A DNA stretch of 10,180 nucleotides from Mesorhizobium sp. (lineage in GTDB: Bacteria > Pseudomonadota > Alphaproteobacteria > Rhizobiales > Rhizobiaceae), in the NCBI GenBank assembly GCA_019509685.1, contig JAEKLU010000315.1, forward strand, positions 1 to 10,180. The letters run 5' to 3'. The notes under the pieces were generated by a model that saw only the letters and a list, made by a program, of their open reading frames with translations, had not been told where the DNA came from and searched no databases. Positions 1 through 10,180 of this stretch are shown here, piece by piece. Each line of letters opens with the position of its first letter. Within the stretch, counting starts at the first letter, position 1. The translations under genes were made by a program, and so were the position numbers.

Positions 1-944
1 TGCCCGAAGACCGGCGCACGCTGTCGACGCTCGACGAACTCAGGGTGCAGACCGCGCAAGGCTCTGTGCCGATCTCGAACTTCGTCGTGCGCAAGCCGGA
101 GCCGACCGTTGGCATCCTCAACCGCATCGACGGCGCGCGGACCGTGGTCGTGCAGGCCAATGTCAGCGCCGGCGCCCAGGTGGCGGCCGTGCAGGAGGAG
201 GTCACCAAGGCCGTCGCCGACATGAACCTCGGCAGCGGCATCCGCTGGAAGCTCGCCGGCTCCAACGAGGACAGCGCGGAAGCCAGCGCCTTCCTCGGCA
301 AGGCGTTCGGCGCGGCGATCTTCCTGATCTTCCTGGTGTTGCTTGCGCAGTTCAACAAGTTCACCAGCGTGTGGCTCGTCTTGTCCTGCGTGGTCATGGC
401 GACGATCGGCGTGTTCCTCGGATTGCTTTTGACAGGCGAAGCCTTCGGCATCGTCATGTCCGGCATCGGCGTCATCGCGCTCGCCGGCGTGGTGGTGAAC
501 AACAACATCGTGCTCATCGACACCTATGACCGGCTGCGCGAAGAAGGCTGGGACAAGATGGATGCGGTGCTGCAGACCTGCCGCGAGCGCGCCCGCCCGG
601 TGGTGCTGACGGCGGTGTCGGCGATCCTCGGCGTGCTGCCGATCGCCTTCGGCCTCGGCCTCGAAATCTTCCATCACGAGACGACGATCAACGCGCCGTC
701 GACGCAATGGTGGATCTCGCTGTCCTCGGCGATCGTGTTCGGCCTGTCCTTCGCCACCTTGCTGACGCTGGTGGTGACGCCGTCGATGCTGATGGTGTTC
801 ACCCGCGCCAAGGTGAAGCCCGGTGCGCGGCGCCACTGGCTCAGCCGCTTGTTCGGGCGCGGCAAGGGCAAGGTAGCGACCGACGAACCGGTCGACGAGC
901 CCGGCGCCGGGCCGGTGGAGGCCTTCCCGAAAGCAGCGGAATAG
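1..944 (+). CDS. RND (AcrB/HAE1-type) multidrug efflux permease, C-terminal part
   Basis: This is the C-terminal end of an inner-membrane RND pump, which uses the proton gradient to export drugs or other small molecules through a periplasmic adaptor and an outer-membrane channel. The reading frame is open from base 3, so the true start lies outside the window; the GTG at 45 is only an internal codon. About 314 of the roughly 1,000 residues usual for the family are visible. They comprise the end of a periplasmic domain followed by five hydrophobic segments matching TM8-TM12 of AcrB. The segment with GVVVNNNIVLIDTYDRLRE corresponds to AcrB TM10, and the RARPVVLTAVSAILGVLPIA stretch to TM11. A charged, proline-rich cytoplasmic tail ends the protein. 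The substrate cannot be read from this part. An intrinsic terminator follows about 25 bases after the stop, so this is the last gene of its operon. Confidence 0.93.
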   Translation, partial: PEDRRTLSTLDELRVQTAQGSVPISNFVVRKPEPTVGILNRIDGARTVVVQANVSAGAQVAAVQEEVTKAVADMNLGSGIRWKLAGSNEDSAEASAFLGKAFGAAIFLIFLVLLAQFNKFTSVWLVLSCVVMATIGVFLGLLLTGEAFGIVMSGIGVIALAGVVVNNNIVLIDTYDRLREEGWDKMDAVLQTCRERARPVVLTAVSAILGVLPIAFGLGLEIFHHETTINAPSTQWWISLSSAIVFGLSFATLLTLVVTPSMLMVFTRAKVKPGARRHWLSRLFGRGKGKVATDEPVDEPGAGPVEAFPKAAE

Positions 945-967
945 AGCGATTTAATAAGCCGATGGAC

Positions 968-1000
968 AAAAGCCGCCCGGGAACAACCGGGCGGTTTTTT
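968..1000 (+). terminator. Rho-independent terminator after the RND gene
   Basis: A perfect 8-bp GC-only stem, CCGCCCGG (973-980) with CCGGGCGG (987-994), encloses a 6-base loop and is followed directly by six T residues (995-1000). An A-run precedes the stem. This is a textbook intrinsic terminator, 28 bases after the stop codon of the efflux gene. Confidence 0.93.
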
Positions 1001-1040
1001 GCATTGTCCCTTCGAACGCAGCCAGACGGCGAGGGTTTCC

Positions 1041-1199
1041 ATGCCGATCAGCACAATTCTGGTAATCATCGTGGTCCTGATCCTGCTCGGCGCCGTGCCG
1101 GCTTGGCCGCATTCACGATCCTGGGGCTACGGGCCGTCCGGCATCGTCGGCGTCATCCTGATCGTGCTGCTGATCCTTTTGCTGATGGGCAGGATCTGA
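1041..1199 (+). CDS. DUF3309 family small membrane protein
   Basis: This 52-residue protein consists of two hydrophobic segments (about residues 4-18 and 32-48) joined by a short polar turn, PAWPHSRSWGYGPSG. That turn is the hallmark of the DUF3309 family, whose members are about 50 residues long and of unknown function. It is probably an inner-membrane protein with a helical hairpin topology. I chose the ATG at 1041 because a GAGGG stretch (1031-1035) lies about six bases upstream and the resulting length fits the family. A longer in-frame start at 999 would fall on the terminator T-run and is unlikely. The gene starts only 40 bases after the terminator of the efflux gene, so its promoter must be compact or rely on read-through. 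Its stop codon directly touches the stop of the convergent epimerase-like gene. Confidence 0.85.
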   Translation: MPISTILVIIVVLILLGAVPAWPHSRSWGYGPSGIVGVILIVLLILLLMGRI

Positions 1200-2156
1200 T
1201 CAGGCCGCCTGACGCGAGGCCGCGACGGCAATGCCGATATCCTGCATGGCTTCCTTCACCGCCTGATCCAGAGGCGTATGCGGGATTTCGCCGATCACCT
1301 CTTCCAGCCGCGTCGAGACCAGCCGGTGCGCTTCGAAGCGCAGATAGGACATCGAGACGATCTCGCGCCACATGGCGACGAACGGGCTGCCGGCGCGCAG
1401 CACCCACCAGGGCATGTAGGTGAGCTTGAGCTTGCGGCCCAGCGCCTTTTCGGCCGCGGCCTTGATGTCGAGGTCGGTGATCGCGTGGCCGGGGAAATTG
1501 ATGGCCTCATAGGCGCCTAATTTGTCGAGGTTGCGGGCGAGGCCGACGAAAGCGACGGCGAAGTCCGGCAGATAGGCCCATTCGTGCACGAGGTCGGCCG
1601 GGCCGGGCGCGGTGTAGACGCCCTTGCTCATCTTGGCGGCGACGACGAGATCGAACCAGGAGCCTGAGCCGGTGCCGCCGAAGAAATCGCCGGCACGCAG
1701 GACAATGGTGCGCACGCGGCCGGCGTCGGCCTCGCTGCGGAACAGCGCTTCCATGGCGCAGCGGATGCGGCCTTTCTCGGTGGTCGGATGGAACGGCGTC
1801 GCCTCGGTGATCACCTGCGGCATCGGCGAGCCGTAATTGTAGACGGTGCCGGGGAACAGATGCAGCGCGTTGTTGGCGTGGCAGGCGGCCATGACGTTCT
1901 CGGCCATCGGCATGCACTTGCCCCAGTCGGTGTAGATCGGGTTCAAACCGTTGAAGACGATGTCGACGCCTTCCGTCGCAGCAATCAGCGACTGGCGATC
2001 GAGCGCGTCGCCGGCGACGGCCGTTGCGCCCTTGAGTTCGGCCGGCACCTTGCCGGTGCGGGTGACGGCGCGGACATCGAAGCCGGCGTCGATGAAGGCC
2101 TTGCCAACCACGCGGCCCAGCCGGCCATTGGCGCCGAGGATTGCGATCTTGGTCAT
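1200..2156 (-). CDS. NAD(P)-binding epimerase/NmrA-like (extended SDR) protein
   Basis: This 318-residue protein starts with a Rossmann nucleotide-binding fold: the GANGRLG motif at residues 8-14 fits GxxGxxG of extended or atypical short-chain dehydrogenases, and an acidic DALD follows at about 50-53. A Tyr-containing TVYNYGSP segment (104-111) lies where the SDR active-site Tyr usually sits, but I do not see a clear YxxxK. It may therefore be an atypical, NmrA-like member that binds NAD(P) rather than a proven dehydrogenase or epimerase. The C-terminal half (from about 220) resembles the substrate-binding part of sugar-nucleotide epimerases. The substrate is unknown. The start is well supported by AAGGAGAG at 2162-2169, five bases before the ATG. 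It lies downstream of the DUF680 gene on the same strand, with a strong hairpin between, and converges with the DUF3309 gene with no gap. Confidence 0.85.
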   Translation of the reverse strand: MTKIAILGANGRLGRVVGKAFIDAGFDVRAVTRTGKVPAELKGATAVAGDALDRQSLIAATEGVDIVFNGLNPIYTDWGKCMPMAENVMAACHANNALHLFPGTVYNYGSPMPQVITEATPFHPTTEKGRIRCAMEALFRSEADAGRVRTIVLRAGDFFGGTGSGSWFDLVVAAKMSKGVYTAPGPADLVHEWAYLPDFAVAFVGLARNLDKLGAYEAINFPGHAITDLDIKAAAEKALGRKLKLTYMPWWVLRAGSPFVAMWREIVSMSYLRFEAHRLVSTRLEEVIGEIPHTPLDQAVKEAMQDIGIAVAASRQAA

Positions 2157-2172
2157 TTGTTCTCTCCTTGTT

Positions 2173-2201
2173 CGAGGCGACGGGACCAGCCCGTCGCCTC
2201 G
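2173..2201 (-). promoter_or_regulatory. 12-bp perfect hairpin between DUF680 and epimerase genes
   Basis: CGAGGCGACGGG (2173-2184) pairs perfectly with CCCGTCGCCTCG (2190-2201) around a 5-base loop. On the minus strand it lies about 15 bases after the DUF680 stop and only a few bases before the Shine-Dalgarno sequence of the epimerase-like gene. There is no U-run after it on either strand, so it is not a canonical intrinsic terminator. It could be a partial terminator, a 3'-end stabiliser, or a processing site that sets different expression of the two genes. Confidence 0.6.
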
Positions 2202-2215
2202 GGATTTCTCTTGGC

Positions 2216-2425
2216 TCAGTGATTGCCGAAGAGGTCGCGGTTGCTGCCCTGGACGACCGGCTTCCGATCGGTCCCATCCGACTTGCCGATCGACGTGGTG
2301 ACCGTGTTGTCGGTGCCGATGACAGCCGGCTGGCTGGCACCGTTCGGGTCGTACTTGTCACTGCCGGCAAAGGCAGTGCCGGCGGCAATGAGGAGGGCGG
2401 CGGCGGTGAGGGTGATCCTGGTCAT
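2216..2425 (-). CDS. DUF680 family small secreted protein
   Basis: This 69-residue protein has a clean Sec signal peptide: MTR, then a hydrophobic core (TLTAAALLIAAG), with cleavage expected after AFA at residue 20. The mature 49-residue peptide is hydrophilic (GSDKYDPNG...) and ends with a PVVQGSNRDLFGNH motif. The signal peptide, the central 'QPAV' and the terminal 'R-LFGN' match the DUF680 family as I know it, which consists of small proteins found in several copies mainly in Mesorhizobium. Their function is unknown; the location should be periplasmic. The start is supported by AGGAG (2434-2438 on the complement) seven bases upstream. It shares a divergent control region with the LysR gene and may be co-transcribed with the epimerase-like gene. 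Confidence 0.82.
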   Translation of the reverse strand: MTRITLTAAALLIAAGTAFAGSDKYDPNGASQPAVIGTDNTVTTSIGKSDGTDRKPVVQGSNRDLFGNH

Positions 2426-2541
2426 TTGAAGTTCTCCTGGTTGGGGTTTGCAGTTCCGTAGCGGTGTTTGCAGGGGGAATATCGCCCCTCTATCGATGAA
2501 TTGAAATTGACCATGGATGTAGTTTTGATATTCATTATTGA
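2426..2541. promoter_or_regulatory. Divergent DUF680 / LysR control region
   Basis: This AT-rich 116-base stretch must hold both promoters. It contains an exact direct repeat GTTTGCAG at 2446-2453 and 2466-2473, offset by 20 bp (two helical turns), on the DUF680 side. A tandem hexamer AATTGAAATTGA lies at 2499-2510. An inverted repeat ATTCA-TTAT-TGAAT (2530-2543) overlaps the LysR start codon. A possible plus-strand promoter is TTGACC (2507-2512), 16 bases, TATTCA (2529-2534). LysR proteins usually control a divergent neighbour and themselves through T-N11-A type sites, so these repeats are candidate operators; that assignment is inference. Confidence 0.5.
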
Positions 2542-3456
2542 ATGAGTGAAATCGACTGGAATCTGATCAAGAGCTTCGTCACGGTCGCGGAAACCGGCAG
2601 TCTGTCGGCGGCGGCGCGAAAGTTGTCCGCCAGCCAGCCGACACTTGGCCGTCACATCGGGGAGCTGGAGCAGGCGCTCGGCGTCATCCTGTTCCGCCGC
2701 GGTCGGAACGGCTACGCGCTGACGGAAGCCGGGGCCACGCTGTTCGAACGCGGCAAGGCCGTCAGCGAACAGGCGAGTGCCTTTTCAAGGCTGGCGCTGG
2801 GTTCGGTCGAGGCGATCGAAGGCACGGTGCGCATTGCAGCCAGCGAGGTGGTCGCTGCCTATGTGCTGCCCGACATGATGGCGCGGCTCGGCATCGAGGA
2901 GCCAGGGATCGAGGTCGAGATCGTCGCTTCGAACCAGGTCGAGAACCTGCTGCGCCGAGACGCCGACATCGCCATCCGCATGGTCAAACCGGCGCAGAAC
3001 GAACTGGTGGCGCGCAAGGTCTGCGATATCCCGCTCTGCGCCTGCGCCGCCATTGCCTATCTCGACCGGCGCGGCCGCCCGCTCGGGCCGGCCGATCTCG
3101 TCGATCATCCCTTAATCGGCTTTGATCGCAGCGACGAGATGATCCGGGGCTTTGCGCAATTCGGCCTCCCGGTCACCCGGAGCAGTTTCCGCTTCAGGGC
3201 CGACAGCCAGATCGTCCTGTGGGAGGCGGTGCGGGCGGGGAATGGCATTGGTCTTGGCCAGGAGCCGCTGGCCGATCGCGATCCACTGGTGGAGAAGGTG
3301 CTGCCCGGCCTGCCGCTGCCTAGCCTGCCGGTGTGGCTCGCCATGCATCGCGACGTGCGCACCAGCATGCGCATCCGCCGCGTGGCGGATTTTCTCCATG
3401 AGGAATTGAAGCGCTATTCGGCAGGAACAGGGTCGGGCGCGAATTCAGCGCGGTGA
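2542..3456 (+). CDS. LysR family transcriptional regulator
   Basis: This 304-residue protein has the normal LTTR length and layout. A winged helix-turn-helix occupies residues 5-64 and includes the typical FVTVAETGSLSAAARKLSASQPTLGRHIGELE and LFRRGRNGYALTEAG segments. A linker helix follows, and from about residue 90 a periplasmic-binding-protein-like effector domain (GTVRIAASEVVAAYVLPDMM..., DADIAIRM, GIGLGQ). It should bind DNA as a tetramer and respond to an unknown small ligand. The ATG at 2542 starts the conserved N-terminus, but no Shine-Dalgarno sequence precedes it, and a candidate -10 box lies only 8 bases upstream, so the mRNA may be leaderless. The last 43 bases overlap the 3' end of the convergent MFS gene. 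Likely targets are itself, the divergent DUF680 gene and possibly the MFS gene. Confidence 0.93.
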   Translation: MSEIDWNLIKSFVTVAETGSLSAAARKLSASQPTLGRHIGELEQALGVILFRRGRNGYALTEAGATLFERGKAVSEQASAFSRLALGSVEAIEGTVRIAASEVVAAYVLPDMMARLGIEEPGIEVEIVASNQVENLLRRDADIAIRMVKPAQNELVARKVCDIPLCACAAIAYLDRRGRPLGPADLVDHPLIGFDRSDEMIRGFAQFGLPVTRSSFRFRADSQIVLWEAVRAGNGIGLGQEPLADRDPLVEKVLPGLPLPSLPVWLAMHRDVRTSMRIRRVADFLHEELKRYSAGTGSGANSAR

Positions 3457-4595
3457 GCGAGCCCGGCCATCAGCAGCACGATAACCAGAAGGCCGGAGAG
3501 CGCGATGAAGATCGGGCCGAAGCTCGAATGCTCGGCGACGAAGCCGATTGCCGACGGCGCCACCAGGATGCCGGAATAGCCCATGGTGGTGACGACGCTC
3601 ATGCCGGTGCCCGACGACATGCCTTCCTGGTTGCCGCCGGCCGAAAACAGGATCGGCACCATGTTGGCGATGCCGAAGCCGCAAAGCGCGAAGGCGGCGA
3701 TGGCAGAATAGGGCGAGGGCGACAGCCCGGCCATCAGCATGCCAGCGGCGGCGACCAGCGCCGAGCCGCGCAATGTCGCCACCGCGCCGAAGCGGTTGCG
3801 CACGCCGTCGCCGAGGAAACGCATCAGCGCCATGACGCCCGAGAAGGCCGCATAGGCGAGGCCTGCCACGGCGAGGTCGGCGCCAAGTTCCTGGTGCAGA
3901 TAGAGCGCCGCCCAGTCGAGCACCGCGCCCTCCGAGATCATGGTGAGCAGCGCCATCAGGCCGACCAGATAGACGATCGTGTGGCGCGGCAGCGTGAATT
4001 TCCGATGCTCGACCGCCTGCGGTTTGTCCTCCGCAATGAGGTAGCCAATGGCGAAGGCGATGACGACAAAGGCGACCACCGTCACTGCGACCGCATGGGC
4101 GAGGTAGCCGTAGGTCTGGATCGAGTAGCCGCCGAGCGCGCCGCCGGCGAAGCCGCCAAGGCTCCAGAAGCCGTGCGACGACGACATGATCGCCCGGGAA
4201 AGCCTTCTTTCAACCACTACGGCATTCGAGTTCATGGCAACATCCATGCCGCCGATCGAGCCGCCGAAGATGAGCATGGCAATCGCCGCCAGGGGAACGT
4301 TGGGCGCCAGCGCCACCACCAACAGGCCGAAGCTGCCGCAGATGCCGAACAACCGCGTCACCGTGCGCGAGCCGTGCCTGGAAATCAGATGGCCGCACCA
4401 GGTCATGGAGATGACCGCGCCGACGCCGAACAGAAGGATCAGCAATCCGAGCGTGAATTTGGTGATGTCGAGCCGGGTGAGGAACACCGGAATCTGCGGC
4501 GCCCAGCTGCCGGTCAGAAATCCGTTGGCAAGGAAAATACCGGCGACGGCCCAGCGGCCGCGGATGGCTGCCTGCATGGCTGTTGGCGCGTTCAT
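3414..4595 (-). CDS. Major facilitator superfamily transporter
   Basis: This 393-residue inner-membrane protein has about twelve hydrophobic segments, the usual MFS size and topology. A motif-A-like loop GHLISRHGSRTVTR (residues 68-81) lies between TM2 and TM3, and a longer cytoplasmic loop (about 190-207, EDKPQAVEHRKFTLPR) divides the two six-helix halves. Sequences such as GFLTGSWAPQIP, GGSIGGMDVAMNSNAV and SSSHGFWSLGGFAGG recall the YbjJ-like branch of MFS permeases, whose substrates are poorly defined; that subfamily call is tentative. The start at 4595 lacks a good Shine-Dalgarno sequence, but a plausible promoter lies upstream (4631-4658). The gene converges on and overlaps the LysR gene. 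It is separated from the next minus-strand operon by the inserted IS1111-type element. Confidence 0.9.
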   Translation of the reverse strand: MNAPTAMQAAIRGRWAVAGIFLANGFLTGSWAPQIPVFLTRLDITKFTLGLLILLFGVGAVISMTWCGHLISRHGSRTVTRLFGICGSFGLLVVALAPNVPLAAIAMLIFGGSIGGMDVAMNSNAVVVERRLSRAIMSSSHGFWSLGGFAGGALGGYSIQTYGYLAHAVAVTVVAFVVIAFAIGYLIAEDKPQAVEHRKFTLPRHTIVYLVGLMALLTMISEGAVLDWAALYLHQELGADLAVAGLAYAAFSGVMALMRFLGDGVRNRFGAVATLRGSALVAAAGMLMAGLSPSPYSAIAAFALCGFGIANMVPILFSAGGNQEGMSSGTGMSVVTTMGYSGILVAPSAIGFVAEHSSFGPIFIALSGLLVIVLLMAGLAHRAEFAPDPVPAE

Positions 4596-4630
4596 GGCTC
4601 GAATCCGCTATGCAAATGGCTTTTCGCGGG

Positions 4631-4658
4631 AAATTAGATCGATTCAATTTGCAGTCAA
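4631..4658 (-). promoter_or_regulatory. Candidate promoter of the MFS gene
   Basis: Reading the minus strand, TTGACT (4658-4653) is followed after 16 bases by TAATTT (4636-4631). This resembles a housekeeping sigma-70 promoter about 35 bases upstream of the MFS start codon. The spacer holds ATTGAATCGAT, which is partly symmetrical and could bind a regulator. The surrounding 4596-4703 otherwise shows no gene. Confidence 0.45.
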
Positions 4659-4703
4659 GGACCGCGCTAGGGAAGTGCTTGGACCAAGGGAAACCGGCGG
4701 TCG

Positions 4704-4778
4704 GCGCCGATCAGCTCGCGACTTCGTCATTGTAGGGTCTGCGTGCGTCGGTTCGCTCCTTGCTCCGCCCTAGAATGA
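4704..4778. repeat. Left part of an interrupted intergenic palindrome
   Basis: This holds the whole left arm and most of the inner right arm of a large hairpin. The left arm (4704-4737) contains GCGCCGATC, 7 bases, then GACTTCGTCATTGTAGGG. After a 30-base loop comes CCCTAGAATGA (4768-4778), which pairs with TCATTGTAGGG with one mismatch. The rest of the right arm lies beyond the insertion sequence at 6067-6088. Palindromes of this form look like the dispersed intergenic repeats of rhizobia, which is recalled, not checked. The last four bases, ATGA, recur on the far side of the insertion. Confidence 0.75.
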
Positions 4779-4782
4779 TGGG

Positions 4783-4794
4783 TGGACGGCCCCT
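4783..4794 (+). repeat. Left subterminal inverted repeat of the IS
   Basis: TGGACGGCCCCT is the exact reverse complement of 6048-6059. It is offset four bases from the inferred left end (TGGG). Such offset subterminal repeats distinguish the IS1111 group from the rest of IS110, which lacks obvious repeats. Confidence 0.85.
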
Positions 4795-4856
4795 TGCGGC
4801 ATCGAATGTGCCAAGCTGGCTGTGTTGTTGAACCCCAGCGGAGGAGACCGTCCGAG

Positions 4857-5811
4857 ATGCAAGCTATCAGATTTGGAATCGACTTGGCCAGCACAGGTGG
4901 AGAAGTTCTTCGCCACGCAGCAGCCGGCGCTGATCGGCATGGAGGCCTGCGGCTCGGCCCATCATTGGGCCCGCACGCTGAGCGCGCTCGGCCATGAGGT
5001 CAAGCTGATGCCGCCGGCCTACGTGAAGCCCTATGTGCCGCGCAACAAGAACGATATCCGCGATGCGCACGGCTGTTGCGAGGCGGTGAGCCGGCCCGAC
5101 ATGCGCTTCGTGCCGATCAAGACGCTCGAACAGCAATGGGCCCGAGCGCTGCATCGCACGCGTGACCTTCTGGTGCGCCAGCGCACGCAGTTGGCCAACG
5201 CCATGCGTGGCCAGCTCTATGAGATGGGCCTGACAAGTGCCAAGGGGGCGGCGGGTATCGAGACCCTGCTGCAGCGCATCGAGACGGCCGATGAAGCCAT
5301 CCCCGCGGCGCTGTTGATCTGTCTGGTGCCCCTGGCCGGGCAATGGCGGACGCTGGATGGCGAGATCGCAAAGCTGGACAAGCAGATCCTGGCTCAGGTC
5401 AGGCAGCAGAAAGCGGCCTTGCGGCTGACGACGATCCCAAGCGTCGGCCCGATCATTGCGCATGCAACCATCGCAGCCATCGGCGACGGTCGCCAGTTTG
5501 CTTGTGCCAGGGACTTCGCCGCCTGGCTGGGCCTGACCCGCAAGAGCCATGACAGCGGTGGCAAGCACAAGTTGACGGGTCATATCAGCCGTGCCGGCGA
5601 CAGGGACCTGCGAAGGCTGCTCATTCTCGGCGCCAGTTCATGGCTGCGTCAGGTCAAGGCAAAGCCCGACAGAGGCTCGCCCTGGATACGCGGCCTGCTG
5701 GCCAGGCGGCCGGTCAAGGTCGCCGTCGTGGCTCAGGCGGCCAAGACCGCTCGCATCATCTGGGCCATGCTGAACTCGGGACAGCAATACAGGGCGCCGG
5801 TAGCGGCATAA
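4857..5811 (+). pseudogene. IS110/IS1111 transposase (recombinase), 5' deletion and frameshift
   Basis: The family's N-terminus is visible from ATG 4857 (MQAIRFGIDLAS), with a GGAGGAG ribosome site 10 bases upstream. Its Asp at 4881-4883 should be the first of the four DEDD catalytic residues. The rest of the protein continues in a different frame from about 4897 (VEKFFATQQPALIGMEACGS...). Between GIDLA and VEKFF only a few codons remain where relatives have about 30, so an out-of-frame deletion of roughly 25-30 codons is the simplest explanation. Downstream the protein is intact: the Glu of GMEACG, the two Asp of NKNDIRDAHG, the Transposase_20 region (TIPSVGP...) and the C-terminal serine region (HDSGGKHKLTGHISRAGDRDLRRLL). 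A 329-residue frame from 4822 is open but has an unrelated N-terminus and lacks the first catalytic Asp. The protein is therefore probably inactive. Confidence 0.8.
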
Positions 5812-5870
5812 ACGCAAATCGAGGGCCCTCAACAGCGTAAGGAGCAAAAAGCAGCACGGCAAAATGGTCA

Positions 5871-6008
5871 GGACCTGGGTCGGGACACTCCGCTTTCGTC
5901 ATCGCGATCACAAAGCGCGCTAGAATGATTGGAACCCGATCCGCGTAACCCTTGCGGGCCAGCGGTCATCAATCGACCGCAATCAAAGGCCGAATACATG
6001 ACCGCTCC
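5871..6008 (+). ncRNA. Candidate bridge RNA (seekRNA) of the IS1111 element
   Basis: The right non-coding end can fold into two successive stem-loops of bridge-RNA design. The first has a lower stem GGTCGGG (5878-5884) with CCCGATCC (5935-5942), a short TCC/GGA helix, an 11x11 internal loop and a CGCG/CGCG cap (5903-5906, 5916-5919). In the internal loop, 5920-5928 CTAGAATGA equals the left target flank (4770-4778), and 5895-5902 TTCGTCAT is the reverse complement of the right flank (6063-6070). The second has stem GCGG/CCGC (5962-5965, 6002-6005). Its 3' loop strand ATACATGAC (5994-6002) equals the element's right end plus flank (6059-6067). Its 5' strand holds CATCA, complementary to TGATG at the left junction, which is only a weak match. 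Exact RNA ends are unknown. Expression is inferred from the family. Confidence 0.72.
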
Positions 6009-6034
6009 AGACTTGCGCCGTCGCCGCCATTTTG

Positions 6035-6050
6035 CCTCTTGCCTAAGAGG
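6035..6050 (+). repeat. Small hairpin at the IS right end
   Basis: CCTCTT (6035-6040) and AAGAGG (6045-6050) form a perfect 6-bp stem with a 4-base loop. The 3' arm overlaps the first three bases of the right subterminal inverted repeat. It may be a recognition structure for the recombinase or may end the guide RNA; neither is shown. Confidence 0.45.
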
Positions 6051-6059
6051 GGCCGTCCA
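6048..6059 (+). repeat. Right subterminal inverted repeat of the IS
   Basis: AGGGGCCGTCCA is the exact reverse complement of 4783-4794. It is followed by TAC, the inferred last three bases of the element, and then by the ATGA flank. Confidence 0.85.
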
Positions 6060-6062
6060 TAC

Positions 6063-6088
6063 ATGACGAAGTCACGTAGGATCGGCGC
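6063..6088. repeat. Right arm of the interrupted palindrome
   Basis: ATGACGAAGTC, six bases, then GATCGGCGC is the reverse complement of the outer left arm at 4704-4730, with the same two conserved blocks and a 6- versus 7-base spacer. On the minus strand this arm begins three bases after the DUF1244 stop codon, so the intact palindrome would have formed a hairpin at the 3' end of that operon's mRNA. Confidence 0.75.
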
Positions 6089-6091
6089 GCC

Positions 6092-6400
6092 CTAGTGATC
6101 CTTCGGCCGCCTTGCCTCGAACTCGGCCTTCTTGGCCTCCGACGCCTCTGTCTGGTTAAGCGCCTGCCATTCGGCATAGGGCATGCCGTAGACAATCTCG
6201 CGCGACACGTCCTTCGACAACGCCACGCCTTCGGCCTCGGCGGCCTCGCGGTACCAGTTGGACAGGCAGTTGCGGCAGAAGCCGGCGAGGTTCATCAGGT
6301 CGATGTTCTGGACATCACCGCGTCCGCGCAGGTGCTCGACCAGACGGCGGAAGGCGGCCGCTTCGAAATCACGCTTCTGTTCGTCGCTGAGTTCGGTCAT
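6092..6400 (-). CDS. DUF1244 family protein
   Basis: This 102-residue cytoplasmic protein belongs to DUF1244, a small family common in alphaproteobacteria whose function is not established. The conserved core is visible: an N-terminal acidic helix (LSDEQKRDFEAAAFRRLVEHLRGR), the segment QNIDLMNLAGFCRNCLSNWY with a CxxC pair at residues 42 and 45, and REIVYGMPYAEWQ. The CxxC pair could bind a metal or form a disulfide, but this is not proven. I chose the ATG at 6400, which has GGGAG nine bases upstream, over a TTG at 6433 that would overlap the previous gene. It lies 29 bases downstream of the N-formylglutamate amidohydrolase gene and is probably co-transcribed. The pair is a conserved neighbourhood in Rhizobiales as I recall it. 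Confidence 0.85.
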   Translation of the reverse strand: MTELSDEQKRDFEAAAFRRLVEHLRGRGDVQNIDLMNLAGFCRNCLSNWYREAAEAEGVALSKDVSREIVYGMPYAEWQALNQTEASEAKKAEFEARRPKDH

Positions 6401-6429
6401 CTCGCGAAACTCCCGGCCTGATGGCCTTC

Positions 6430-7227
6430 TCAAACCGGCCCGGTGCGCGAGCCGAACATCTTCACCGCATGTATATCGGCACGACGGTCGATGGCGTCAA
6501 CGATCGGCGCAAGCCGTTCGGCCCAGGCGAGAGCGCCGGCTCGGTCGGCGATCAGGTCCTGGCGGATCTCGATCAGCGCATGGGCGTAGCCGTTGACGAT
6601 GGCGTGCCGGAACATGGTATCGCCGCGCAGCGCGCCGTCATAAGGCTCGTTGTCGCCGACGACGAGGTTGTTGTCCTGCGCCAACAGGTCGATCAGGGGG
6701 CGCGCGACGCGCTCGTCGAGGTCCCACAGCACGCCGACATGCCAGGGGCGCACCAAACCCTGCATCACCGGCGTGAAGGAATGCACCGAGAAGATGAAGG
6801 GCGCCCTGCCCGAAGCATGCGCGACCGAGGCGATCATAGCGCCGACGGCATCGTGATAGGGGCGATAGAAGCGGTCGAGCCGCCGCTCGCGCTCTTGCGC
6901 CGACATCGGATAGTTCGCCGGCACGATGGTGCCGTCATAGAGCTGGCGGATGAGCGTCGGGTCGTCCTCGCCACGGTTCGGATCGATCAGAAGCCGCGAG
7001 AAGCCGGCAAGCACAGCCGGCGCGTCGAGCGCCGCCGCCAGCTCGCGCGTCACTGTCTCGACGCCGATGTCATAGGCGATGTGACGGTCGAATTCGGATG
7101 CCGGCAAACCGAGGCTGGCGTATTCCTCGGGAAGATCGCGCCGGGCATGATCCGCCAGAAGCACGATGCCTTTCTTGCGATCGCCCTCGACAATGTCGAA
7201 GGGCGCGAAAACTGTGGATCGGGTCAT
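6430..7227 (-). CDS. N-formylglutamate amidohydrolase family protein
   Basis: This 265-residue protein belongs to the N-formylglutamate amidohydrolase family. Characterised members hydrolyse N-formylglutamate to formate and glutamate at the end of one histidine-degradation route (HutG-type); close relatives may act on other formyl-amino acids. Diagnostic motifs are DHARRDLP (26-33), SRLLIDPNRG (77-86), VHSFTP (148-153, probably metal or substrate binding) and EIRQDLI (220-226). No signal peptide is present, so it is cytoplasmic. No other hut genes lie in the window, so a role in histidine use cannot be deduced and I give no gene symbol. The start at 7227 gives the usual N-terminus but has no strong Shine-Dalgarno sequence. 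It is divergent from the DUF1036-pyruvate kinase pair and heads a two-gene unit with DUF1244. Confidence 0.88.
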   Translation of the reverse strand: MTRSTVFAPFDIVEGDRKKGIVLLADHARRDLPEEYASLGLPASEFDRHIAYDIGVETVTRELAAALDAPAVLAGFSRLLIDPNRGEDDPTLIRQLYDGTIVPANYPMSAQERERRLDRFYRPYHDAVGAMIASVAHASGRAPFIFSVHSFTPVMQGLVRPWHVGVLWDLDERVARPLIDLLAQDNNLVVGDNEPYDGALRGDTMFRHAIVNGYAHALIEIRQDLIADRAGALAWAERLAPIVDAIDRRADIHAVKMFGSRTGPV

Positions 7228-7463
7228 CGGCTGAAAAGGGGCTGGTCACTTGGGTGTGCTATCGTCATTCCACGAAGAGGGCGCTGGCGCAATGCCGTTG
7301 TTTGGCCAAGGTTTCTGCAAAAAATCCAGGACGGGACAGGATTTTGCGCCTCGGGCTCTTCTAAATCGATTGGAACTGAACAAAACGGCGCGTTGACATG
7401 CGACCGGAGTTTGCTGAAAAGAGGCTTCGAGAGATGCAAATGTGGTTCGCGAGGGATTTCGGA
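7228..7463. promoter_or_regulatory. Divergent control region, amidohydrolase / DUF1036-pyk
   Basis: This 236-base stretch carries no convincing gene. It must contain both divergent promoters. An AT-rich inverted repeat AAAATCC (7321-7327) and GGATTTT (7339-7345), 11 bases apart and extendable to GC at the outer ends, is a candidate operator. A consensus -35 hexamer TTGACA lies at 7393-7398, facing the DUF1036-pyk pair, but the -10 about 17 bases downstream (around 7416-7421) is poor. Because TTGACA includes the A of an upstream ATG at 7398, a start there is unlikely. Confidence 0.45.
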
Positions 7464-7952
7464 ATGGGTTTAGCCGGCAGGCTGCGCAAGCGCCTCACGC
7501 TGCCGTTCCTGTTCGTCGCCGCGGGATTATGCGCAATGGCCATTACCTCGCCGGCCCGGGCCGACTTCCGCGTTTGCAACGCGACGCAAAATCTGGTGGG
7601 CGTCGGCATCGGCTATCGCGCCAAGGCCGGCTGGATCACCGAGGGCTGGTGGCACATCGAAGGATCGACCTGCAAGACGTTGATCGAGGGCCCGCTGTCA
7701 TCAAGGTTTTACTATCTTTATGCAGAAGACGCCGAGCGTGGCGGGCGCTGGGATGGCCCGATCAACATGTGCGTGGCCGAAAAAGAGTTCAAGATCGCCG
7801 GCGTGAATGATTGCGTCGCCCGGGGCTTTCAGCGCGCCGGATTTCAGGAATATGACACGGGCGAGCAGGCAAGCTGGATGGTCCAGCTGACCGACGAGCC
7901 CGCAACGGGAGGCGCGCCGAACGCCCCCGCCCCGGGAACAAACAGTCAATGA
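7464..7952 (+). CDS. DUF1036 family secreted protein
   Basis: From the chosen ATG this is a 162-residue precursor with a strong signal peptide: a basic start (GLAGRLRKR), a hydrophobic core, and cleavage expected after ARA at residue 33. The mature protein, beginning DFRVCNAT, shows the DUF1036 pattern (VCNATQNLVGVGIGYRAKAGWITEGWWHIEGSTCKTL...). Four Cys in the mature part (in VCN, STC, NMC and NDC) could form two disulfides in the periplasm. The function is unknown. I prefer ATG 7464 because GAGGGA (7451-7456) precedes it by seven bases and the signal peptide is then normal; upstream in-frame ATGs at 7398, 7434 and 7440 are possible. The C-terminus is a Pro/Ala/Gly-rich tail. Its stop overlaps the pyruvate kinase start in ATGA, so the two are probably translationally coupled. 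Confidence 0.85.
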   Translation: MGLAGRLRKRLTLPFLFVAAGLCAMAITSPARADFRVCNATQNLVGVGIGYRAKAGWITEGWWHIEGSTCKTLIEGPLSSRFYYLYAEDAERGGRWDGPINMCVAEKEFKIAGVNDCVARGFQRAGFQEYDTGEQASWMVQLTDEPATGGAPNAPAPGTNSQ

Positions 7953-9376
7953 GACGCAGCCGCAAGGTCAAAATCCTCGCCACCATCGGTCCGGCATCCT
8001 CTTCCGAGGAGATGCTGAAAAAGCTTTTCGAAGCCGGCGCCGATGTCTTCCGCATCAATATGAGCCATACCGACCACGAGCTGATGCGCACGCTGGTCGG
8101 CCGCATCCGCGCCGTCGAGGAAGCCGTGGGCCGCCCGATCGGCATCCTCGCCGACCTGCAGGGGCCGAAGCTCAGGGTCGGCAAGTTCGCCAACGTCAAG
8201 GAAGCGCTGACCGCCGGCCAGACCTTCACACTCGACGACAATCCGGAGCCCGGCACGTCGAAGCGTGTCTACCTGCCGCACCCGGAAATCCTGAGCTCGG
8301 TCGAGGCCGGTCACCGACTTTTGATCGACGACGGCAAGCTCGAGCTCAAGGCGGTGAAGGCAGATGGCAAGTCGATCACTTGCACCGTCGTCGCCGGCAG
8401 CGGCATTTCCGACAAGAAGGGCGTCAGCCTGCCCGACACCGACCTCCCGGTCGGCGCGTTGACCGAGAAGGATCGCGCCGATCTCGACGCGGTGCTGGCC
8501 GCCGGCGTCGACTGGGTGGCGTTGTCCTTCGTGCAGCGCCCAGAGGATCTGGCCGAAGCGCGCAAGATCGCGCGCGGCCGGGCGCTCATCATGGCCAAGA
8601 TCGAGAAGCCGCAGGCCGTCGCCCGGCTGGCCGAGATCATCGAATTGTCCGACGCGCTGATGGTGGCGCGCGGCGACCTCGGTGTGGAAATGCCGCTGGA
8701 AGCCGTGCCCGGCATCCAGAAGCAGATCACGCGCGCGGCGCGCCGCGCCGGCAAGCCGGTGGTGGTCGCCACGCAGATGCTGGAATCGATGATCACCGCG
8801 CCGGTGCCGACCCGCGCCGAGGTTTCGGACGTTTCCATCGCCGTCTTCGAAGGCGCGGACGCCATCATGCTTTCGGCCGAATCCGCCGCCGGCGCCTATC
8901 CGGTCGAAGCGGTCGCCATGATGAACCGCATCGCCGCCAAGGTCGAAACAGATCCGACCTATGCCGGCATCATCAACGCCCAGCGCTCCGAGCCGGAAGC
9001 GACCGGCGCCGATGCCATCTCGCTGGCCGCCCGCGAAATCGCCGAGACGCTGAAGCTGTCGGCGATCATCACCTACACGGCATCCGGCACCACCGGCCTG
9101 CGCGCCGCGCGCGAACGCCCGCAAGTGCCGATCATCGCGTTGTCGCCGATCCTCAACACGGCGCGCCGGCTGTCGCTGCTCTGGGGCACGCATTGCGTCG
9201 TCTCGCCGGATGCGACCGACCTCGACGACATGGTCGACAGGGCCTGCCGCATCGCCCTGGAGGAAGGTTTCGGCAAGGTAGGCGACCGCGTCATCATCAC
9301 CGCCGGCGTGCCGCTGAGGACGCCTGGTTCGACCAATATGCTGCGCATCGCCTATGTCGGGTCAGATGCGCATTAG
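7949..9376 (+). CDS. pyk: Pyruvate kinase
   Basis: This 475-residue enzyme transfers phosphate from phosphoenolpyruvate to ADP, giving pyruvate and ATP, the last step of glycolysis and the lower Entner-Doudoroff route. It acts in the cytoplasm, usually as a homotetramer. The family's signatures are all present: KILATIGPAS at the start, RINMSH (35-40), ADLQGPKLR (68-76), the active-site signature LIMAKIEKPQAV with catalytic Lys217 and metal-binding Glu219, VARGDLGVE (239-247), ATQMLESM (274-281) and AIMLSAESAAG. The B domain spans about 72-168, and the C-terminal regulatory domain runs from about 330. Length is typical and no catalytic residue is missing. The ATG overlaps the DUF1036 stop by four bases (ATGA), and no separate ribosome site is needed if translation is coupled. 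Confidence 0.97.
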   Translation: MRRSRKVKILATIGPASSSEEMLKKLFEAGADVFRINMSHTDHELMRTLVGRIRAVEEAVGRPIGILADLQGPKLRVGKFANVKEALTAGQTFTLDDNPEPGTSKRVYLPHPEILSSVEAGHRLLIDDGKLELKAVKADGKSITCTVVAGSGISDKKGVSLPDTDLPVGALTEKDRADLDAVLAAGVDWVALSFVQRPEDLAEARKIARGRALIMAKIEKPQAVARLAEIIELSDALMVARGDLGVEMPLEAVPGIQKQITRAARRAGKPVVVATQMLESMITAPVPTRAEVSDVSIAVFEGADAIMLSAESAAGAYPVEAVAMMNRIAAKVETDPTYAGIINAQRSEPEATGADAISLAAREIAETLKLSAIITYTASGTTGLRAARERPQVPIIALSPILNTARRLSLLWGTHCVVSPDATDLDDMVDRACRIALEEGFGKVGDRVIITAGVPLRTPGSTNMLRIAYVGSDAH

Positions 9377-9414
9377 TCGTTAGCTGGCCTTGAACGCATG
9401 CCTCTAAGCGGTTT

Positions 9415-9870
9415 TCAACGCGTCGCAATTCTGGAGGCTCTGGCTGCGGCTTCGGCGTGTTTTATGCGTTGAAGGAACCGGGCCGCGCGCGGAACGGGGT
9501 CGTGTAGGTACTGATTCGGGCCCAGTATCTTTCGCCGGTTGAGCTCGGCAGTATCGAGCAGGTCGAAATCGACCCTGGCGATCGTGCAGTGCCACCCGGC
9601 GCTGCGTGAAGCCCAGCCCTTGGCGTGGTGTTCCAACAGCCGCTCACGCGCGGAATAGCCGTGATAGTCGAAGGCGATCACGCCGTCGGTCACATAAATA
9701 TGGTTTCCGGAAACCGGAATGATCCGCTCGCCGTAAAATCCCTCCAGAGGGGGATGCTCGAGAAAGATGCCCGCAAGAATGGCGCAAGCGCCATGACCGA
9801 AGAATATGCGGTCCGGCAATGCCCATCGCTTCTCCGGGTTTTTCTTGATGCCGTGCTTCAAGACATACAT
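9415..9870 (-). CDS. Hypothetical protein, 151 residues
   Basis: I do not recognise this family with certainty. The protein is soluble, with no signal peptide or membrane helix, and has a compact core: LPDRIFFGHGACAILAGIFLEH (residues 19-40), then GERIIPVSGNHIYVTDGVIAFDYHGYSARERLLEHH (48-82), and a basic, Ala/Arg-rich C-terminus. Cys29 at the start of a predicted helix followed by His57 and Asp68 in strand-like segments is the order seen in papain-like/NlpC-type cysteine hydrolases, but this is only a resemblance. The ATG at 9870 is chosen because it follows the stop of the upstream hydrolase gene by seven bases; the longer open frame to 10041 only shadows that gene. The ribosome site is weak, so it may depend on coupling. 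It converges on pyruvate kinase with 38 bases between the stops. Confidence 0.7.
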   Translation of the reverse strand: MYVLKHGIKKNPEKRWALPDRIFFGHGACAILAGIFLEHPPLEGFYGERIIPVSGNHIYVTDGVIAFDYHGYSARERLLEHHAKGWASRSAGWHCTIARVDFDLLDTAELNRRKILGPNQYLHDPVPRAARFLQRIKHAEAAARASRIATR

Positions 9871-9877
9871 GCGATAC

Positions 9878-10180
9878 TCAGGTAGGCGCGAGTTCCGCGT
9901 CAGGAACCCGGATGTCGGGGCATTTGTCGTCGTTGTAGGCGTCGCCGGCGATCCGTGCTTCCACGGTTTTTGCCATGGCCTGGAGATCGACCGGCGCGCC
10001 GGCGATTTTTTCGATGGCGCCGATGACGAGGTCCGATGCAATCCAGTCGGACTTGTGGCCGAGATTGCGGATCCAGATCAGCTCGGCGCCCGCAATGTCG
10101 CGCTCAAGGCCGACGGAGTGGATGGTGGCGTAGACGATCTTGTCGCGGTCACCTGAAATGATCACGGTCGGCGCCTTGAT
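9878..10180 (-). CDS. Alpha/beta hydrolase, C-terminal part
   Basis: The frame is open to the window edge, so the N-terminal part, including the nucleophile, lies outside. About 100 residues are visible. IKAPTVIISGDRDKIV carries the GxxD motif with the acid member of the catalytic triad (Asp13 of the visible part), and IWIRNLGHKSDW carries the catalytic His (His42). Both are typical of alpha/beta-fold hydrolases (esterase, lipase or haloperoxidase-like). A basic-acidic tail follows. The GTG at 10165 is internal, not the start. The substrate is unknown. The stop lies seven bases before the 151-residue protein's start, suggesting one operon. Confidence 0.85.
   Translation of the reverse strand: MKAPTVIISGDRDKIVYATIHSVGLERDIAGAELIWIRNLGHKSDWIASDLVIGAIEKIAGAPVDLQAMAKTVEARIAGDAYNDDKCPDIRVPDAELAPT

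What the first reader, a model, noticed from the sequence alone, without database searches (positions are those of the whole stretch)
5871..6066. Guide RNA in the IS right end still matches its insertion site and its own right end
Directly visible: two stem-loops with 9-base apical loops lie in the non-coding right end. In the first, CTAGAATGA (5920-5928) equals the left target flank 4770-4778, and TTCGTCAT (5895-5902) is the reverse complement of the right flank 6063-6070. The two facing strands of the 11x11 internal loop each end in the shared ATGA/TCAT core. In the second, ATACATGAC (5994-6002) equals the right IS end plus flank (6059-6067). This is the logic of IS110/IS1111 bridge RNAs (seekRNAs): one loop for the target, one for the donor. 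The weak point is the right-donor guide, with only 5 matching bases (CATCA, 5967-5971).
Basis: partly seen in the sequence, partly recalled or inferred. Interest (0 to 1): 0.9.

Follow-up and report, generated by a model that had tools for sequence, protein, structure and literature searches.

The report
Guide RNA of REP-targeting insertion sequence
A decayed jumping gene in what looks like a Mesorhizobium chromosome still carries the small guide RNA that directed it into a common palindromic repeat; this is a well-supported new member of a guide-RNA family already described in 2024.

Summary
Window 4775-6066 is an IS1111-type insertion sequence. The quoted matches are real; in the window alone both target matches together arise in 4 of 10,000 shuffles. 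The comparative test is decisive. In 36 non-redundant elements the two strands of the internal loop match each element's own right and left target (0 of 50,000 permutations each), and swapped strands do not. Eighteen of 22 stem pairs show compensatory changes. The left-donor guide tracks each element's own right end. All 11 readable left flanks, window included, lie at the same point of a REP-like palindrome, and orthologous empty sites carry one ATGA where the window has two. Three corrections. (1) The second stem-loop as drawn is not the conserved fold. (2) CATCA 5967-5971 is not the right-donor guide: relatives place it just 5' of a GGCC helix, and it is degenerate in this clade. (3) The transposase gene lacks 68 bp, so this copy is probably dead unless helped in trans. 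New member of a known kind; IS1111 elements in REPs are already in print.

The parts
4775..6066 (+). IS1111-type insertion sequence with ATGA on both sides (one ATGA belongs to the IS or core, so the ends are uncertain within 4 bp)
   Evidence: Close copies and orthologous empty sites with one ATGA
4720..4778 (+). REP-like palindromic repeat, left part; its right arm continues at 6067
   Evidence: Same palindrome flanks the other copies; joined flanks fold into a long hairpin
4770..4778 (+). Left target, CTAGAATGA including core ATGA
   Evidence: conserved in 11 of 11 readable left flanks with one- or two-base variants
4783..4795 (+). Left subterminal inverted repeat (12 bp pair with the right one in this copy)
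   Evidence: Sequence; 12-13 bp in close copies
4822..5811 (+). Remnant of the DEDD transposase gene
   Evidence: PF01548 and PF02371; 92% identical to intact P0001 over 93% of the query
4890..4891 (+). Point where 68 bp present in other copies are missing, with frameshift
   Evidence: 10 of 10 close-copy loci that span the point; sequence compared
5866..6021 (+). Conserved seekRNA/bridge-RNA region
   Evidence: Alignment A1; covariance model R1
5877..5942 (+). Target-binding arm: stem 5877-5884 with 5935-5942, inner hairpin stem 5904-5907 with 5915-5918, internal loop between
   Evidence: coordinates mapped
5895..5902 (+). Right-target guide TTCGTCAT, complementary to top strand 6063-6070
5920..5929 (+). 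Left-target guide CTAGAATGAT
5948..5955 (+). Position where most relatives carry the right-donor guide; here ACCCTTGC, of which ACCC complements the left IS end
   Evidence: weak in this clade
5957..5991 (+). Conserved GGCC/GGCC helix (5957-5960 with 5988-5991) enclosing hairpin 5962-5966 with 5976-5980
5994..6001 (+). Left-donor guide ATACATGA, same as right IS end plus core
6048..6059 (+). Right subterminal inverted repeat AGGGGCCGTCCA
   Evidence: Sequence
6063..6070 (+). Core ATGA and right target
   Evidence: 9 of 9 readable right flanks begin ATGACGA

Best explanation
The region is the seekRNA (bridge RNA) of an IS1111-type insertion sequence. Shown here by comparison: the 5' strand of its internal loop (5895-5902) carries the complement of the right target's top strand, the 3' strand (5920-5929) carries the left target, a covarying fold holds them, and a downstream segment (5994-6001) carries the right IS end. 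The target is one arm of a REP-like palindrome, and the insertion leaves ATGA on both sides. Inferred from the published mechanism: the RNA is made with the transposase transcript from the promoter formed when the IS ends are joined in a circle, binds the transposase, pairs with both target strands and with at least one donor end, and so places the exchange. This copy's transposase gene is broken, so it could move only if an intact relative supplied the protein.
For: Guides match the element's own targets in strand-specific slots in 36 elements (6.86 against 3.74 and 6.25 against 3.96, 0 of 50,000 permutations each; swapped strands 13,523 and 38,546 of 50,000) and in whole non-coding regions of 46 elements (0 of 20,000 each). 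Smaller held-out set of 9 usable viral-contig loci agrees: 2 and 30 of 20,000. 18 of 22 pairs with compensatory changes, 0 of 500 shuffles on each of five measures. Left-donor guide equals own right end, mean 5.33 of 6 against 3.79, n=45, 0 of 50,000. Same site in 11 of 11 left and 9 of 9 right flanks; empty sites. RNA model found just 3' of the transposase in 15 of 17 held-out loci. Guide order as published for IS1111.
Against: No expression data. In 9 of 36 elements the right-target slot and in 14 of 36 the left-target slot matches the own target by fewer than 6 nt. L078, the nearest non-Mesorhizobium relative, matches its right target by only 5 nt. One opposite-strand control is borderline (948 of 20,000), and one swapped control in the held-out set gives 774 of 20,000. 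The right-donor guide of this clade is degenerate. The transposase of this copy is broken.
Confidence: 0.93

Rival explanations
1. The matches are relics of REP sequence picked up by the IS, and the transposase itself recognises the REP by sequence or by its hairpin; the RNA has no guiding role.
For: The target is a palindromic repeat that is common in these genomes, and REPs are known IS targets.
Against: Unrelated elements with other targets carry the matches in the same two slots, on opposite strands, and the matches change with the target.
Confidence: 0.03
2. The RNA guides target choice only; the donor ends are recognised by the transposase through the inverted repeats, and the left-donor match has another cause, such as a structural motif copied from the end.
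For: The published seekRNA section names only target matches, in an RNA of 82-96 nt. IS1111 has long inverted repeats. The right-donor guide is degenerate in this clade.
Against: The left-donor guide tracks the bases outside the inverted repeat (TAC, CAC, TAT, CAG, TGT and others) of each element's own right end: 33 of 45 perfect over 6 nt, 0 of 50,000 permutations. The base before CAT in the right-donor guide tracks the own left end in 20 of 33 readable rows (13 of 20,000).
Confidence: 0.2
3. The copy is a fossil and its RNA is no longer made; the matches only record the last insertion.
For: 68 bp of the transposase gene are missing, and the published promoter exists only in the joined circle.
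Against: Guides, fold and both ends are unbroken, and close copies with open frames exist. This rival is compatible with the best explanation for the element's past.
Confidence: 0.6

Closest known systems
IS1111-family seekRNAs (ISEc11, ISPa11, ISKpn4, ISPst6; Siddiquee et al. 2024, PMC11187229; abstract, sections 6, 9, 13 and passages read)
   Same: Non-coding region 3' of a DEDD transposase gene, subterminal inverted repeats, right-target complement 5' of left-target match, no net target duplication; ISPa11 also targets a REP.
   Different: Different host and repeat; this copy's transposase gene is broken; RNA not shown experimentally.
IS110-group bridge RNA of IS621 (Durrant et al. 2024, PMC11208160; section 12 and passages read)
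   Same: Target guides on the two strands of an internal loop; donor guides in a second loop.
   Different: The RNA lies at the other end of the element; in IS1111 the two target matches are in reversed order (abstract); the donor part looks like a multiloop, as that paper says for many IS1111; the right-donor guide is degenerate in this clade.
ISRm19 of Sinorhizobium meliloti (Tobes and Pareja 2006, PMC1525189; passages read)
   Same: IS110-family element inserted in REP sequences of a rhizobium.
   Different: Different genus and repeat; no RNA was discussed in the passages seen; sequence relation not tested here.

Membership tests
IS1111 family (IS110 superfamily) | DEDD/RuvC domain plus Transposase_20 domain | tested here: met
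   PF01548 and PF02371 above cut-off in the window remnant and in intact P0001
IS1111 family (IS110 superfamily) | Subterminal inverted repeats of 7-17 bp | tested here: met
   12 bp in the window by reading, 12-13 bp in close copies
IS1111 family (IS110 superfamily) | Longer non-coding region downstream of the transposase gene | tested here: met
   5812-6062; 248 nt to the repeat end in L036, L043, L045, L046
IS1111 family (IS110 superfamily) | Fixed position and orientation in a specific target, no net added bases | tested here: met
   empty sites; two ATGA after insertion, one of which counts as IS by the published convention
IS1111 seekRNA | Top-strand complement 5' of bottom-strand complement | tested here: met
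   5895-5902 before 5920-5929; same slots in 36 elements; published order
IS1111 seekRNA | RNA co-purifies with the transposase and is needed for transposition | not testable with these tools
   No RNA or protein data
Bridge RNA with four guides | Left-donor guide | tested here: met
Bridge RNA with four guides | Right-donor guide | tested here: inconclusive
Autonomous (active) IS copy; not a criterion of family membership | Unbroken transposase frame | tested here: not met
   68 bp missing, with frameshift

The most novel reading that the evidence does not exclude
IS1111 seekRNAs are full bridge RNAs that read the donor ends as well as the target: in most relatives both donor guides covary with the element's own ends. 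The Mesorhizobium REP clade has drifted to a one-sided donor guide, which predicts that one guided donor strand plus the inverted repeats suffices for donor recognition.
Probability: 0.55. Interest if true: 0.5.

Novelty: new member of a known kind. Interest (0 to 1): 0.36.

Why it matters
It adds a naturally REP-targeting IS1111 guide RNA from a rhizobial host and accounts for the element lying between genes. The alignment of 39 RNAs with their own targets and ends gives guide predictions for many IS1111 elements at once. It also makes testable the question of RNA-read donor ends, which the bridge-RNA paper treated for IS110 and IS1111 elements by manual inspection of six cases.

Tried and rejected
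Rejected: CATCA 5967-5971 as right-donor guide. In L036, L043, L045, L046, L047 and L044 the stretch reads TCTTCG, and it lies at the loop side of a hairpin whose loop varies freely. Rejected: the long GCGGTCAT/ATGACCGC hairpin of the minimum-energy fold; the covarying pairs are 119-122 with 157-160 and 124-128 with 143-147 of A1. Rejected: a 9-nt donor match.

Led nowhere: Rfam gave nothing at gathering score for the window or at E<=5 for 5800-6080. The one genome-contig scan gave two distant loci. The class of G172 gave a match in 1 of 385 genomes at E<=1e-110, 58% identical, and that genome's genus held 1 genome. tblastn against plasmids at E<=1e-80 gave 53 records, all below 60% identity. 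Viral contigs gave 17 loci, none above 56%.

Weak or mis-anchored results. The first left-donor landmark mis-anchored several rows. The corrected one mis-anchors 6 of its 12 imperfect rows (L078, L051, L054, L009, L069, L015), so its count is conservative; the other 6 differ at one base. A first right-donor test by longest match was weak (419 of 20,000); the anchored test followed. In one search the pattern for the window's right-target guide hit an unrelated place and was ignored. In one search, L114 has almost no right flank and L122 has doubtful ends; both were kept.

Rows dropped. Of 78 loci, 5 had no transposase hit (L001, L002 and the three pyruvate-kinase loci) and 4 were partial (L038, L039, L040, L044). 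Twelve more fell out for missing or doubtful ends. With the window 58 remained, reduced to 46 by similarity of the non-coding region. A1 has 39: 36 of those 46 (ten of the more diverged left out) plus three close copies; the close copies were removed again. Of 17 held-out loci 9 were usable.

Full report
What was checked. The left-target match is longer than stated (10 nt) and the donor match shorter (8 nt), because the ninth base lies in the target flank. Against 10,000 dinucleotide shuffles of the non-coding region, matches as long as those to the left target, right target and donor occur 129, 165 and 31 times, and both target matches together 4 times. For one sequence this is suggestive, not proof.

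The element. Pfam finds both IS110-superfamily transposase domains. The 20 best proteins are 85-93% identical; the 7 of them that carry an organism name are all from Mesorhizobium. The window's organism is not told. A genus whose member G172 has a pyruvate kinase 96% identical to the window's was used as its neighbourhood, and I call it Mesorhizobium by inference. Of 146 genomes of that genus, 7 have a match at E<=1e-100: 6 hold 11 matches at 90-96% protein identity (five in G494; several of the others end at contig ends, and the two in G493 may be one copy), and 1 holds a 53% relative. Inverted repeats of 12-13 bp lie just inside the ends of the close copies and the non-coding region lies 3' of the gene. 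These are IS1111 features (PMC11187229: abstract, sections 6, 9, 13 and passages read).

The site. All 11 readable left flanks (window plus 10 loci) end in C[CA][TC]AG[AG]ATGA at the arm of a palindrome; all 9 readable right flanks (window plus 8 loci) begin ATGACGA; sequence further out differs between copies. The neighbouring DUF1244 gene is present in 144 of 144 genomes of the genus searched, and 30 loci were fetched. In 4 of the 30 (L086, L087, L106, L107) the alignments of both window flanks meet with a 4-bp overlap, and L093 shows the same uninterrupted site by reading; the sites read CC[TC][AG]G[AG]ATGACGA-like with one ATGA. Others of the 30 carry a similar palindrome there with a different right side, or their left flank does not reach the site. 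CCYWGRATGACGA occurs 15 to 92 times per genome in 10 of 10 genomes examined, the reversed pattern 0 times. The target is thus a common palindrome, and the IS sits between an MFS gene and the DUF1244 gene.

The guide test. Loci around homologous transposases (38-56% identical by tblastn) came from phylum, genus, family and class searches (35 of 299, 7 of 146, 48 of 394 and 1 of 385 genomes with a match at each search's own limit); at most 30 loci were fetched per search. Ends were found from the inverted repeats. In 46 non-redundant elements, window included, the non-coding region matches the element's own left target on the same strand (mean 6.93, permuted 5.85) and its own right target on the opposite strand (7.30 against 5.69), 0 of 20,000 permutations each; opposite-strand controls give 18,289 and 948 of 20,000. 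The second control is borderline, perhaps because some targets are palindromic. Restricted to the two loop strands of alignment A1 (36 elements) the result is 6.86 against 3.74 and 6.25 against 3.96, 0 of 50,000 each, with swapped strands at 13,523 and 38,546 of 50,000; 27 and 22 of 36 elements match by 6 nt or more. A held-out set from viral contigs (17 loci, 9 usable) gives 30 of 20,000 for the right and 2 of 20,000 for the left target, with swapped controls at 774 and 19,737; the slots used there overlap. Related elements are not fully independent, so these permutation counts are not exact probabilities.

The fold. On 39 sequences RNAalifold gives 22 pairs, 18 with compensatory changes. 92.7% of cells are paired against 76.6% in shuffles, the covariation score is 0.502 against 0.190, 0 of 500 shuffles reach the observed value on any of five measures, and sliding the partners gives at most 0.133. 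A covariance model built from this alignment finds the RNA 3' of the transposase in 15 of 17 held-out loci; the other two (L124, L125) end within 100 bases of the partial match. In 33 control loci it gives one weak hit (E 0.026). In window coordinates the target arm is 5877-5942, with the right-target guide on its 5' strand and the left-target guide on its 3' strand, the order published for IS1111.

The donor side. The 6 nt after a conserved landmark equal the element's own right end in 33 of 45 elements (mean 5.33 of 6 against 3.79 permuted, 0 of 50,000); of the 12 others, 6 are anchoring errors and 6 differ at one base. Just 5' of the GGCC helix 34 of the 39 aligned elements carry NCAT; in 33 with a readable left end its first base fits the own left end in 20 (13 of 20,000 permutations), and 8 more are T opposite G, which could wobble. 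The five rows with GCATTA are exactly those whose left end reads GATGC. The window, its three close relatives in A1 and L078 lack the motif and read ACCCTTGC or similar there. The donor half is one-sided in this clade, or its second guide has shifted.

State of this copy. Ten of 10 close loci that span the point have 68 bp that the window lacks near the start of the transposase gene, which also shifts the frame. RNA, guides and both ends are unbroken. I infer a non-autonomous relic that could be moved only with protein supplied in trans; whether the host has an intact copy is unknown, since no genome is held for the window. By my reading of the pieces printed, joining the ends would put TTGCCT 17 bp before CATGAT, a possible weak junction promoter of the published kind; I did not test this.

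Novelty. IS1111 seekRNAs and IS110 bridge RNAs are in print (PMC11187229; PMC11208160, section 12 and passages). IS110-family elements in REPs, including ISPa11 and ISRm19, are in print (PMC1525189, passages). Listings for Mesorhizobium with IS1111 (3 of 3 papers), Mesorhizobium with 'repetitive extragenic palindromic' (15 of 18), Mesorhizobium/palindromic/insertion sequence/RIME (15 of 25) and IS110 with that REP phrase and rhizobi (2 of 2) showed no title describing this element; only listings were seen, and the library holds open-licence papers only. It is a solid new member of a known kind. The family-wide covariation of the donor guides goes, as far as I saw, somewhat beyond what the papers read here show.

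Noticed in passing
window 4857-4895: The transposase gene of this copy lacks 68 bp found in 10 of 10 close loci that span the point, just after the codons for FGIDLA, with frameshift.
   Followed up: yes
window 4720-4778 and 6067-6076: REP-like palindrome split by the IS; its 13-nt core pattern occurs 15-92 times per genome in 10 genomes of the presumed genus. I found no name for this repeat in the listings seen.
   Followed up: partly
L055, L056, L066, L007, L069: A subgroup of relatives shares left end GATGC and donor motif GCATTA; their left-target slots match the own target by only 3-5 nt, and some flanks look palindromic.
   Followed up: partly
L015 and L006: Distant relatives whose left flanks (TACTAGGAATGATG; TCGTCATTGGGTGATG) resemble the Mesorhizobium target, perhaps other REP-like sites.
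   Followed up: no
window 1-10180: Gene context by Pfam: ACR_tran efflux, NmrA/epimerase-like, LysR regulator, MFS, DUF1244, N-formylglutamate amidohydrolase, DUF1036, pyruvate kinase.
   Followed up: partly
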